Positions 5,607 to 47,765 of a DNA stretch of 64,000 nucleotides are shown piece after piece (position 1 is the first letter of the stretch; every line of letters begins with the position of its first letter). This stretch comes from Draconibacterium orientale (lineage in GTDB: Bacteria; Bacteroidota; Bacteroidia; Bacteroidales; Prolixibacteraceae), in assembly GCF_000626635.1 (NCBI RefSeq), contig NZ_CP007451.1:2737501-2801500 (forward strand). Reading direction: 5' to 3'. A program made the position numbers and the translations under genes. Under the pieces are notes generated by a model. That model searched no databases, was not told where the DNA came from, and worked only from the letters and a program-made list of their open reading frames with translations.

Positions 5607-6076
5607 AATTTCAGACGATTTTAAAAGTCAATTTTCTGCAGCCAAATGTACAAATCTATTTTTTACTTTTTGCCCGAAGTTCGATGGATCAGTTTAAATT
5701 TCAGGAGGAGAAGCAATTATTATCATTTTGCTTTGTTTCTTTATTGATAAATGAGCTCATGTCAAAGTCAATACTGGCTTAATTGAGGCGCTACCCTTTT
5801 GTTCCCGACGTAAAGTACGGAATTTCGCAAGCTCAACTGTAGACATTTTCCCTTATGAAGGGAAAACAGTTTTATAGTAAGGGCGGAAGAAGACTTGATG
5901 CTATCCTCTTTAGTTTGTTAATTGTTGGCTCCCCTCTTGAGTTCCTGACAGGGTGAGGGGTTAAGCATATCTCAATAGTTTTAATGTCGTTCCAAAGTTG
6001 CAATACACCGCAATCTCTATGTAATCTGCTCTAAGTTTTAGTTCTTTTTCCTACTTCTGACTTCCGTCTGGGACTA
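5607..6076. other. Intergenic region holding dispersed repeat copy A
   Basis: A 470-bp spacer between two minus-strand genes without a credible ORF. Its centre (5791-5971) is one copy of a repeat also found at 35422-35602 and around 45.9-47.8 kb. The rest is AT-rich unique sequence. Confidence 0.7.
5791..5971 (+). repeat. Dispersed intergenic repeat, copy A
   Basis: Begins CTACCCTTTTGTTCCCGACG, continues with TTTCGCAAGCTCAACTGTAG, a TTTTCCCTT/AAGGGAAAA hairpin and ends GACAGGGTGAGGGGTTAAGC. The same blocks, in the same order, occur in copy B at 35422-35602 and in reverse orientation at 45911-46009 and 47544-47765. Confidence 0.85.
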
Positions 6077-35421: not shown

Positions 35422-35602
35422 CTACCCTTTTGTTCCCGACGTAAAGTACGGGATTTCGCAAGCTCAACTGTCGACATTTTCCCTTATGAAGGGAAAACAG
35501 TTTTTTAGTAACTGGAAGAGGATTTGGTGCTGCTATTACAGCTTCCTAACAACAGGCTCTCCTCGTGAGGGGAGTCCCGACAGGGTGAGGGGTAATGCAT
35601 AT
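35422..35602 (+). repeat. Dispersed intergenic repeat, copy B
   Basis: Same orientation and block order as copy A at 5791-5971: CTACCCTTTTGTTCCCGACG, TTTCGCAAGCTCAACTGTCG, the TTTTCCCTT/AAGGGAAAA hairpin, a CTCCTCGTGAGGGGAG hairpin and GACAGGGTGAGGGGTAATGC. Confidence 0.85.
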
Positions 35603-45910: not shown

Positions 45911-46009
45911 TACTAAGCGTTTCAATGAAGCGGTTTTTCCCCTCGTGAGGGGCTTTACGTCGGGGACAAAGGGGTAGGGTTTGTGTAAATTACCCTACCC
46001 CTCACCCTT
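45911..46009 (-). repeat. Dispersed intergenic repeat, copy C (interrupted)
   Basis: Reverse orientation: TACTAAGCGTTTCAATGAAG, a CCCCTCGTGAGGGG hairpin, TTTACGTCGGGGACAAAGGG and CTACCCCTCACCCTT. The sequence breaks at 46009; its continuation CCTTTCGGGAGCTCCCC is found at 47544, on the far side of the IS110 element. Confidence 0.8.
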
Positions 46010-46020
46010 CTATGTTGTAA

Positions 46021-46387
46021 TCCAAATTTTATTTTTAGCATTTTGCTCATTATTAGCTATTTGTATTTCTTCAAAATAATACCTTCGGGCAATACAGAGC
46101 CAGCAGGTTTTCCTCTCCTGGTTAAATCCTTAGCGGGTTCGATGCCCGCTAAGGATTTGAAGTAACCTTCGGTATAAAATTTCGCCGTTGGTTACCCCTC
46201 CTGGTTTTCCAAATCCGGTCTATAAAAACACCCTTCTATTAACGGACACCTAAAAACGGGCCGCATACCTGTGTTCAATTTATTATAGATAAGAGCCGCA
46301 GCCTCTCGGAAACAGACACCTTACGGGCTGCAAGGGCAAAGTAACGGTCTCTTTATCATTGAAGTGTTTTTAGCACCAGTCTGGATT
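46021..46387 (-). ncRNA. Candidate bridge RNA region of the IS110 element
   Basis: The long noncoding end of the element is dense in stem-loops: a perfect 14-bp hairpin (46124-46158), GTAACC-CGG/CCG-GGTTAC with symmetrical TT/TT bulge (46162-46195), and GCAGCC/GGCTGC (46298-46303 and 46326-46331) enclosing a 22-base loop. CACCCTTCTAT at 46229-46239 repeats the left insertion junction (46003-46013) exactly. IS110-family elements encode a structured bridge RNA with donor and target guide loops in this position; the exact ends, and which strand is used, are inferred. Confidence 0.55.
46124..46158. repeat. 14-bp perfect hairpin with tRNA T-loop sequence
   Basis: AAATCCTTAGCGGG / CCCGCTAAGGATTT with loop TTCGATG. 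The inner part GCGGG-TTCGATG-CCCGC has the stem length and loop sequence of a tRNA T-arm, and the outer 9 bp resemble an acceptor stem. No tRNA D or anticodon arm is present. Confidence 0.75.
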
Positions 46388-47467
46388 TTACTGTACAACT
46401 GAATGCACATATTCTTTTTCATTTTTCATTACATATCTTATCCTGTTCAGTAATTTCTTTGCAATTTTTATAATTGCCTTGTTGGGCTTCATTCTTTTAC
46501 AAAGTTCTAAGTAACACTGTGCCAAAGCCGGATCGTTCCGTGAAGCTATCCAGGCGGCTTCTATAATTATGCCTCTAAGTGGCTTGTTTGAACGAGAAGT
46601 AATCTTTCCTGTTTTATCATTCTCTCCTGATGTATTTGTTCTGGGCACGAGCCCAACAAATGAACACAATTTATCAAGGTTCTTGAACCGTAAAATCGTT
46701 TCAAGTTCTGAAAGCAGGGTAACTGCTACTATCAAGCCTATACCAGGAATACTCCTGAGTAGCTTGATCTTAAAACCATACATCACTTCTTTCTCCAGCT
46801 CTCTTAACTTACGGTTTATTTTTAACAGCTCTGCCCTTAAATGTTTTACTGTTGCCAATGTGCTTTGTAAAACCATACCTCCATAAGGAGTAGACTGTTG
46901 TACCTCTTCGAGCCATTGGGTAAATTTCCCGGACCAGTATGTGGAAGCCTGGGCCAGGGGGCCGGGAATCGCAATACCAAAACAATGAAGATGTGATTTT
47001 ATCCGGCTTTTATGTCTTGATATTTCTTTTACCAATGTTTTACGGTAACGTACCAGCGACCTTAGTTCTTCTGTTTCTTTATCAGGGACATGAATACCGG
47101 TGAGTTCCCCGTTCTTTAATGAACGGGCTATCTTACGACTATCGCGACGATCTTCTTTTTGTTTGCGTTCTTTATCTGTAGTCGGAATATCGGCTGGATT
47201 GACTACAATACTTTTTATACCATACTTCTCTAAATTTCGGTGAGCGCTGAATCCACAGAAACCAGCTTCATAAGCAGATAAATAATTACCCCCGGGAAAA
47301 GTACGTTGAAGGTAAGTATACAAAGTCCCTGCATCAGGATTTTGTGATATCGTCTTGGTTAAACTATTTTCAGTCATTGCCGTTACTGTCCAATTTTTTA
47401 AATGGGCATCGATTCCTATATAAATGTTTTGTCCCTGAAAACTAATTGTTTTAACTTTCCCTTGCAT
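46388..47467 (-). CDS. IS110 family transposase (bridge-RNA recombinase type)
   Basis: 359 residues. N-terminal RuvC-like DEDD domain: D20 in YIGIDAH, Glu in SAYEAGF, and the Asp pair in KEDRRDSRKIAR. A coiled-coil linker follows, then the Tnp_20 domain with LRSIPGIGLIVAVTLLSEL, FVGLVPRTNTSGE (nucleophilic Ser region) and GKITSRSNKPLRG. All landmarks are intact, so the element may be active. ATG at 47467. Confidence 0.95.
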   Translation of the reverse strand: MQGKVKTISFQGQNIYIGIDAHLKNWTVTAMTENSLTKTISQNPDAGTLYTYLQRTFPGGNYLSAYEAGFCGFSAHRNLEKYGIKSIVVNPADIPTTDKERKQKEDRRDSRKIARSLKNGELTGIHVPDKETEELRSLVRYRKTLVKEISRHKSRIKSHLHCFGIAIPGPLAQASTYWSGKFTQWLEEVQQSTPYGGMVLQSTLATVKHLRAELLKINRKLRELEKEVMYGFKIKLLRSIPGIGLIVAVTLLSELETILRFKNLDKLCSFVGLVPRTNTSGENDKTGKITSRSNKPLRGIIIEAAWIASRNDPALAQCYLELCKRMKPNKAIIKIAKKLLNRIRYVMKNEKEYVHSVVQ

Positions 47468-47543
47468 AAGTGTTCATCTTTTTTTGTTTCGCAAAAACTA
47501 ATTTACAAAACTTGGATGCTTATGCACTTTTACAAACATACAG

Positions 47544-47765
47544 CCTTTCGGGAGCTCCCCTCACGAGGGGAGCCGGCTACCAGGTTACACTAAGCGTTTC
47601 AATGAAGCTGTTTTCCCTTTTAAGGGAAAATGTCGATAGACAAAAGGGTAGTGTTTTTAATCAATCTCTTGACCCTGCACCCTTTCGGGAGCTTCTCTCG
47701 CGAAATGTCGATAGTTGAGCTTGCGAAATCCCGTACTTTACGTCGGGGACAAAGGGGTAGGGTTT
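47544..47765 (-). repeat. Dispersed intergenic repeat, copies C (rest) and D
   Basis: Right of the IS110 element: CCTTTCGGGAGCTCCCCTCA with a CCCCTCACGAGGGG hairpin completes copy C. Then ACTAAGCGTTTCAATGAAGC (47588-47607, also at 45912-45931), a TTTTCCCTTTTAAGGGAAAA hairpin, CACCCTTTCGGGAGC, and AGTTGAGCTTGCGAAATCCC plus ACGTCGGGGACAAAGGGGTA, the reverse of the start of copies A and B. Confidence 0.8.

What the first reader, a model, noticed from the sequence alone, without database searches (positions are those of the whole stretch)
46021..46387. IS110 noncoding end carries a bridge-RNA candidate with an 11-nt match to its own insertion junction
Seen: 378 noncoding bases downstream of the transposase, with several stem-loops, and CACCCTTCTAT at 46229-46239 identical to the left junction at 46003-46013 (7 target bases + 4 element bases). 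The predicted circle junction (ACAG-CCTTCTAT) also matches 46228-46239 at 11 of 12 positions. GGCTGC (46326-46331) is close to the inverted right end (GGCTGT). Known: IS110/IS1111 recombinases use a bridge RNA whose loops pair with donor and target. Inferred: 46228-46239 is part of a guide loop.
Basis: partly seen in the sequence, partly recalled or inferred. Interest (0 to 1): 0.75.

Follow-up and report, generated by a model that had tools for sequence, protein, structure and literature searches.

The report
Transposon's RNA guide, target loop located
A jumping gene in a Bacteroidota genome very likely carries, next to its enzyme gene, a short RNA that reads both the DNA it jumps into and its own ends; the spot first noticed is the part that reads its own end, and the part that picks the target lies about 70 to 100 bases away.

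Summary
The 11-nt match is real (46229-46239 = 46003-46013) and unlikely by chance (18 of 2000 shuffles reach 11 nt for any junction). It does mark a bridge RNA/seekRNA, but the segment serves the other side of the reaction. The element is an IS1111-type IS110-family insertion sequence (5 copies in the genome, each in a REP-like palindrome). In 49 aligned rows (window and related elements at other targets) I mapped which RNA bases track which DNA bases. The target loop is at 46303-46341 (right target guide 46333-46341, left target guide 46303-46311). The right donor guide (46269-46272) co-changes with the left tip. RNA structure, guide order, subterminal repeats and downstream location fit IS1111 seekRNA/bridge RNA. 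All five occupied sites have the purine next to the core that the guide allows; 22 of 23 empty REP-like sites lack it. New member of a known kind; comparative evidence for a donor loop in an IS1111 clade is the main addition. No RNA data exist here.

The parts
46009..47544 (-). IS1111-type insertion sequence between the two core dinucleotides
   Evidence: Five full copies in G000 with different flanks define both ends; ends agree with relatives.
46388..47467 (-). DEDD transposase/recombinase, 359 aa, with GLVPRTNTSG motif
   Evidence: Pfam PF01548 E 1.5e-16 and PF02371 E 2.4e-21; NCBIfam NF033542 'IS110 family RNA-guided transposase' 206.2 bits, cut-off 140.
46007..46008 (.). core dinucleotide CT (AG in transposase orientation) at the right end
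   Evidence: Copies, especially L005, and relatives.
47545..47546 (.). core dinucleotide CT at the left end
46219..46376 (-). bridge RNA / seekRNA core, about 158 nt (inferred transcript)
   Evidence: Covariance model R1, 138.7 bits (the window sequence is in the model); 88.3% of pair cells formed, 23 of 33 pairs with two-sided changes.
46364..46372 (-). P1 closing stem, 5' strand
   Evidence: 2 of 9 pairs with two-sided changes.
46223..46231 (-).
46345..46357 (-). P2 (target-loop stem), 5' strand
   Evidence: 9 of 10 pairs with two-sided changes.
46333..46341 (-). right target guide CUUUGCC + core complement CU; would pair with the top strand of core + right target
   Evidence: Own targets 16/26 against 1.3 from swapped targets; covariation with R1-R7.
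   Evidence: 6 of 7 pairs with two-sided changes.
46303..46311 (-). left target guide UUCCGAG + core AG; would pair with the bottom strand of left target + core
   Evidence: Exact 6-mer 14/26 against 3.3; L1 39/40 against 11.1, 14 joint changes on the tree, 13 to a matching state.
46288..46298 (-). P2 (target-loop stem), 3' strand
46269..46272 (-). right donor guide ACAG; would pair with the element's left tip (GCTGT)
   Evidence: D3 41/41 against 21.8; D3 6 joint changes, 6 matching, none single. Next base 46268 tracks D1 in relatives but is a mismatch in the window.
46242..46264 (-). donor-loop internal hairpin
   Evidence: 6 of 7 pairs with two-sided changes.
   Evidence: Identical to the right tip CATAGA-AG; 47 of 50 rows; changes together with the tip in L163, L156, L135.
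46011..46020 (-). right subterminal inverted repeat (TTACAACATA in transposase orientation)
47530..47540 (-). left subterminal inverted repeat (TATGTTTGTAA); TATGTTTG 47533-47540 would be the -7 box of a circle-junction promoter
46023..46026 (-). TTTG, the -33-type half of the possible circle-junction promoter
   Evidence: TTTG-N20-TAnnTTTG on joining the ends: 23 of 37 elements; NTTG 35 of 37.
46124..46158 (-). strong hairpin downstream of the bridge RNA, possible 3' boundary
   Evidence: 14-bp stem in the fold; position. Role inferred.
46000..46006 (.). right half of the occupied target (R1-R7)
47547..47553 (.). left half of the occupied target

Best explanation
The noncoding right end of this IS1111-type element is transcribed on the transposase strand into a bridge RNA/seekRNA of about 158 nt. 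[quoted passage not shown] Its second loop (46272-46233), in the multiloop closed by P1, reads the element's own joined ends: the right donor guide pairs with the left tip, the left donor guide AUAGAAG with the right tip. The transposase uses this RNA to join circle and target at the shared core AG/CT, putting the element into REP-like palindromes. Shown here by comparison: conserved structure, the four guides (the left donor guide by three outgroups only), core, end anatomy, and occupancy that follows the guide. Inferred: transcription, RNP formation, circle intermediate, and catalysis as in IS621/ISEc11.
For: Own against swapped targets, 26 elements: exact 6-mer of left target+AG 14/26 against 3.3; 8-mer with at most one mismatch (left target, AG, first right base) 18/25 against 4.0; reverse complement of AG+right target, 9-mer with at most one mismatch, 16/26 against 1.3. 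Rule-extracted guides: 187 of 294 non-core matches against 91.1 (0 of 20000 permutations; 21 of 26 elements, five dropped), and in five later elements 47 of 70 against 21.5 (157 of 20000; no arrangement scored higher). Covariation map: the nine highest of 5896 tests all lie in LTG, RTG or RDG on the expected bases. Joint changes on the transposase tree, total/matching: L1 14/13, L2 10/10, R1 7/7, R2 11/9, D3 6/6, D1 6/5. Structure 88.3% paired against 77.5% shuffled and 39-54% slid. 28 of 31 model hits in 140 family genomes lie just downstream of an IS110 transposase match (many of these are in the model). Purine at -1: occupied 5/5, empty 1/23, Fisher p 6e-5. Guide order as in IS1111 seekRNAs (PMC11187229).
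Against: No RNA or protein data. The fold of the single window core is no better than shuffles (z -0.21), although the whole end is (z -3.78). The number of further pair types does not exceed shuffles (50 against 48.1, 126 of 500), and A2 spans were cut at P1, which favours P1. The window copy fits its target only with wobble pairs; a wobble-compatible non-REP site (3538973) is empty. In the map 33 tests exceed z 4 and 7 fall below -4, some of the high ones off the expected bases (46336 with R3 z 6.0, 46232 with D2 z 5.2), so relatedness inflates z. On the tree D2 has no joint change, R7 matches in 4 of 9, L4 and L5 change alone more often than together, and one control pairing reaches 8/5. 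One transposase match of 46% identity (G025:C415) has no model hit.
Confidence: 0.93

Rival explanations
1. One reading: 46228-46239 selects the insertion site because it copies the left junction including target bases.
For: 11-nt identity, unlikely by chance; base 46232 correlates with target base +1, 28/43 against 17.5, 21/30 against 14.1, p 0.002.
Against: AUAGAAG is constant in 47 of 50 rows while targets differ; the following four bases match own targets only slightly more than permuted ones (39 against 33.4 of 120); the +1 signal gives 1 matching of 3 joint changes; a clear target loop lies elsewhere.
Confidence: 0.04
2. No donor loop: the RNA reads only the target, the subterminal repeats are bound by the protein, and AUAGAAG is a fossil copy of the end.
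For: An 82-nt ISEc11 seekRNA, for which only target matches are described in the sections I read, supports movement (PMC11187229).
Against: Donor guide bases co-change with the element's tips: D3 41/41 and 6/6 joint changes; left guide and right tip change together in L163, L156, L135.
Confidence: 0.08
3. The element is recruited to REP-like palindromes by their DNA fold, and the RNA only helps catalysis.
For: All five copies sit beside palindromes; some relatives' flanks look palindromic by eye (not tested).
Against: 22 of 23 empty REP-like sites differ at the base that the guide checks; guides track the target base by base in relatives at unrelated targets.
Confidence: 0.04

Closest known systems
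IS1111 seekRNA elements (ISEc11, ISPa11, ISKpn4; PMC11187229)
   Same: Noncoding region downstream of tnp, subterminal inverted repeats, RNA with a top-strand match 5' of a bottom-strand match, overlap at the insertion point; long RNA of 145-170 nt there, about 158 nt modelled here; ISPa11 also targets a REP.
   Different: A Bacteroidota clade (relatives 44-63% identical to the window transposase); Bacteroidota-type promoter parts at the ends; comparative evidence for donor guides, which the sections I read (Results, Discussion) do not report.
IS621 bridge RNA (IS110 group; PMC11208160, PMC11208158, passages seen)
   Same: Two loops, each with a left guide copying the left top strand and a right guide complementary to the right top strand, core included; REP targets; CT/AG core.
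   Different: RNA downstream of tnp, right guide before left guide in both loops, donor guides in the P1 multiloop; a handshake base is not supported here.
IS1111 bridge RNAs predicted by Durrant et al. (PMC11208160, section 12)
   Same: Bridge RNA in RE, potential donor nucleotides in a multiloop.
   Different: There by manual inspection of six diverse IS110/IS1111 elements; here by covariation over 49 rows.

Membership tests
IS110 family (DEDD recombinases) | N-terminal DEDD_Tnp_IS110 and C-terminal Transposase_20 | tested here: met
IS1111 group | Long noncoding region downstream of tnp | tested here: met
   Window: 378 nt downstream, about 77 nt at the other end. 33 elements with both ends found: 314-640 nt downstream (the search itself asked for a right end beyond 180 nt and a left end within 115 nt).
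IS1111 group | Subterminal inverted repeats of 7-17 bp | tested here: met
   TATGTTTGTAA / TATGTTGTAA, one-base indel.
IS1111 group | GL-P----S(T)G motif in the C-terminal domain | tested here: met
   GLVPRTNTSG in the translation; motif.
IS1111 group | seekRNA top-strand match 5' of bottom-strand match | tested here: met
   RTG 46341-46333 then LTG 46311-46303; rule.
bridge RNA | Guides covary with target | tested here: met
bridge RNA | Guides covary with donor ends | tested here: met
   RDG; LDG in three outgroups only, otherwise constant.
bridge RNA | Handshake bases beyond the core (described for IS621) | tested here: inconclusive
   Raw correlation not kept on the tree.
bridge RNA / seekRNA | RNA made, bound by and needed by the transposase | not testable with these tools
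   Needs experiment.
IS110 group (IS621 type) | RNA upstream of tnp, left guide before right guide | tested here: not met
Rfam families | Match to a curated RNA family at its gathering score | tested here: not met
   Only 5S rRNA in the window.

The most novel reading that the evidence does not exclude
In this IS1111 clade a single RNA reads both the target and the element's own two tips by base pairing, with tip and donor guide evolving in step, so that the donor ends as well as the target should be reprogrammable; this would settle, for the clade, the difference between a target-only seekRNA picture and the two-loop bridge picture. A sub-clade adds a 74-aa protein between RNA and right end.
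Probability: 0.8. Interest if true: 0.5.

Novelty: new member of a known kind. Interest (0 to 1): 0.42.

Why it matters
It gives a near base-resolved map of target and donor guides for an IS1111-type bridge RNA from natural variation. For IS1111 elements the papers I saw show target guides by experiment and propose donor contacts by inspection of a few elements. It offers Bacteroidota-native RNA-guided recombinases with their guide code, and a natural case in which one guide base separates occupied from empty repeats in a genome.

Tried and rejected
Handshake base at 46232: raw p 0.002, one of seven tests; not claimed, because joint changes on the tree are 3 with 1 matching. Rfam: no bridge RNA family. 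GGCTGC as inverted end: it is a hairpin arm. Plus strand as the RNA: its fold also lies below shuffles (z -3.27), but guides and model fit the minus strand. First search for ends failed by an index error of mine and was redone. MAFFT alignment A1 misaligned P1 and RNAalifold saw only 10 pairs; A2 was made from 24 of the 34 spans. The guide rule misregisters where AG occurs twice, in the window too, which lowers its scores. The P1 own-versus-swapped test is weak (9.4 against 8.1). The five later elements are the only usable ones among the 20 loci given to (L090 and L093 are copies of L024 and L026); guide positions had been fixed, but the extraction rule was coded after I had seen these sequences, so the test is not blind in the strict sense. 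Accessory protein: no Pfam, NCBIfam or PHROGs family, no PDB fold match at E 0.001 or better, none of 36 pattern-matched viral stretches encodes a relative.

Full report
What is there. The window lies in one 5.13-Mb contig. A Draconibacterium MAG contig (L032, 8695 bases) and G052:C190 (8695 bases, same genus as the window) carry the same element at the same place, so the host is probably a Draconibacterium or close to it (inference). The minus-strand gene 46388-47467 is an IS110-family transposase. Five full copies of the element, 99-100% identical, lie in the genome. Their flanks give the ends, in transposase orientation: target-left + AG | GCTGTATGTTTGTAA ... tnp ... noncoding end ... TTTGGATTACAACATAGA | AG + target-right. 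L005, with GAG-AG on the left and GGCAAGG on the right, together with the relatives, puts the core at AG (CT on the + strand, 46007-46008).

The observation. The 11-nt identity is exact and the coordinates are right. Of 2000 shuffles of the noncoding end, 18 reach 11 nt against any junction and 6 against the left junction. It is more than chance, but alone it does not say which guide it is.

Relatives. Searches with the transposase gave relatives 44-63% identical over most of their length. One search defined both ends in 33 elements: five copies of the window element, 28 relatives of which three are second records of the same contigs; 26 distinct noncoding ends remain, the window's included. 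Later duplicates (L090/L024, L093/L026, L149/L027) were dropped. A plain BLAST of the window's noncoding end against relatives' downstream DNA already showed that the block around AUAGAAG is the stretch most of them share.

Finding the target loop. Each noncoding end was searched for its own target and for the targets of the others (26 elements). Left target+AG occurs in the same sense (exact 6-mer 14/26, 3.3 expected; 8-mer with one mismatch allowed, including the first right base, 18/25, 4.0 expected); AG+right target occurs as reverse complement (9-mer, one mismatch allowed, 16/26, 1.3 expected). In most elements both lie 5' of the AUAGAAG block, by about 100 and 70 nt. Guides cut out by a rule give 187 of 294 non-core matches against 91.1 by permutation (0 of 20000; 21 of 26 elements usable, L027, L049, L050, L052, L054 dropped), and 47 of 70 against 21.5 in five elements fetched afterwards (157 of 20000; no arrangement higher). 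The rule was coded after those five had been seen.

Structure. Alignment A2 (24 sequences) with P1, P2 and the two internal hairpins: 88.3% of cells paired (shuffled 77.5), 23 of 33 pairs with two-sided changes (13.7), covariation score 0.396 (0.209; slid versions 0.08-0.15); further pair types 50 against 48.1, not in excess. The two loops resemble each other (GCAGCCC..GGTGTCTGTT before the left target guide, GCGGCCC..GGTGTCCGTT before the left donor guide). The fold of the single core sequence shows the same helices but is not more stable than shuffles (z -0.21).

Base-by-base map. On a model-based alignment of 51 rows (L149 and L135 dropped, left flanks of L133 and L141 not used) RNA columns were tested against target positions -10..+10 and left-tip positions 1-4 (5896 tests). 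Strongest: 46305 with L1 (39/40, 11.1 expected; the one exception is the window copy, G against A, a wobble pair, while its sibling L005 has G), 46270 with tip base D3 (41/41, 21.8), 46336 with R2 (36/43, 15.1), 46306 with L2 (28/32, 10.1), 46335 with R1 (32/43, 14.0), 46341 with R7, 46308 with L4, 46271 with D4, 46309 with L5. R3-R6 and L3 follow (z 4.4-5.8). Off the expected bases, 46336 with R3 reaches z 6.0 and 46232 with D2 z 5.2; 33 tests exceed 4 and 7 fall below -4, so z values are inflated by kinship. On a tree of 43 transposases (six rows left out), joint changes/matching were L1 14/13, L2 10/10, L3 11/8, L4 6/4, L5 6/4, R1 7/7, R2 11/9, R3 6/4, R4 8/5, R5 8/5, R6 5/3, R7 9/4, D1 6/5, D2 0/0, D3 6/6, D4 4/3; eight control pairings gave 3/0, 5/3, 8/5, 4/0, 1/0, 1/1, 3/0, 6/1. 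The bases next to the core (L1, L2, R1, R2, D1, D3) carry the case; the outer ones are weaker.

AUAGAAG (46239-46233) repeats the right tip CATAGA-AG and is present in 47 of 50 rows. Most rows had been picked with it as anchor; of the 12 rows that came from model searches 9 have it. In L163 both guide and tip read ATAGGAG; in L156 and L135 both contain TGGAAA. It is the left donor guide. The next base, 46232, correlates with target base +1 (28/43, 17.5 expected) but only 1 of 3 joint changes matches; 46231-46229 is the P1 stem.

Occupancy. The guide has G at the position before the core. The five occupied sites have A (4) or G (1); of 23 empty REP-like sites found with up to 3 mismatches, 18 have C, 4 T, 1 A; Fisher p 6e-5. 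The one empty A site lies in the window (47671-47691) and departs from the repeat in its right half. A non-REP site that fits all wobbles (3538973) is empty.

Expression. Joining the ends would give TTTG-N20-TAnnTTTG in 23 of 37 elements (NTTG in 35 of 37); target flank plus left end gives it in 0 of 41, with 20 bases of flank examined. TAnnTTTG at -7 with TTTG around -33 was deduced for B. fragilis; the same passage says that the -33 motif was not found in Flavobacterium johnsoniae (PMC7366714, one passage; -7 box also PMC9723704, passages). ISEc11 forms its promoter at the circle junction (PMC11187229). That this happens here is inferred.

Spread. The RNA model finds 31 places in 23 of 140 family genomes at E 0.01, hits in 12 of 393 order genomes and 4 of 395 class genomes at E 1e-4, the window's genome counted in each. 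In the family set 28 of 31 lie just downstream of a transposase match; many are in the model itself.

Comparison with the literature. Seen: PMC11187229 abstract, Results and Discussion; PMC11208160 passages and section 12; PMC11208158 passages. Downstream region, subterminal repeats, C-terminal motif and guide order fit IS1111. Donor nucleotides in a multiloop were predicted there for many IS1111 orthologues. Searches for bridge RNA/seekRNA terms listed no work whose title or abstract start deals with this element or with guide covariation in Bacteroidota IS1111; most subscription papers and all preprints are outside that library.

Verdict. A well-supported new member of the IS1111 bridge RNA/seekRNA elements.

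Noticed in passing
L026:3794-4018, L027:1724-1948, L028:3782-4006, L029:3620-3844, L032:1748-1972 (all +): Five relatives with a ~600-nt downstream region carry a conserved 74-aa ORF (66-82% identity to L027) between bridge RNA and right end; no Pfam, NCBIfam or PHROGs family; AlphaFold2 mean pLDDT 81.5, order strand-strand-helix-strand-strand, no PDB fold match at E 0.001 or better.
   Followed up: partly
L166:1492-1713 and L167:293-496: Distant relatives of that small protein (E 9e-13 and 8e-10) occur in loci without a bridge RNA hit; in L166 beside ORFs that look to me like a replication protein and an HTH protein (by eye, no family search), which suggests exchange with a small phage or plasmid.
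   Followed up: partly
G054:C79 (L141), G116:C93 (L134), G059:C76 (L135): Bridge RNA copies without a transposase match; L141 and L134 keep a right end, L135 a right-end-like sequence; probably remnants.
   Followed up: partly
window 35574-35594, 5942-5962, 47671-47691: REP-like repeats of this genome (CTCCCGANAGGGTGAGGGGTA with up to 3 mismatches), 23 empty sites in all; L010 and L014 share flanking letters with the occupied site of L002.
   Followed up: partly
L037, L054, L094, L162, L163 flanks: Some relatives' targets also look palindromic by eye, so palindromic intergenic DNA may be a common target class in this clade.
   Followed up: no
window 46124-46158: Hairpin with a 14-bp stem, AAATCCTTAGCGGG...CCCGCTAAGGATTT, between bridge RNA and right end; may end or protect the RNA.
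   Followed up: no
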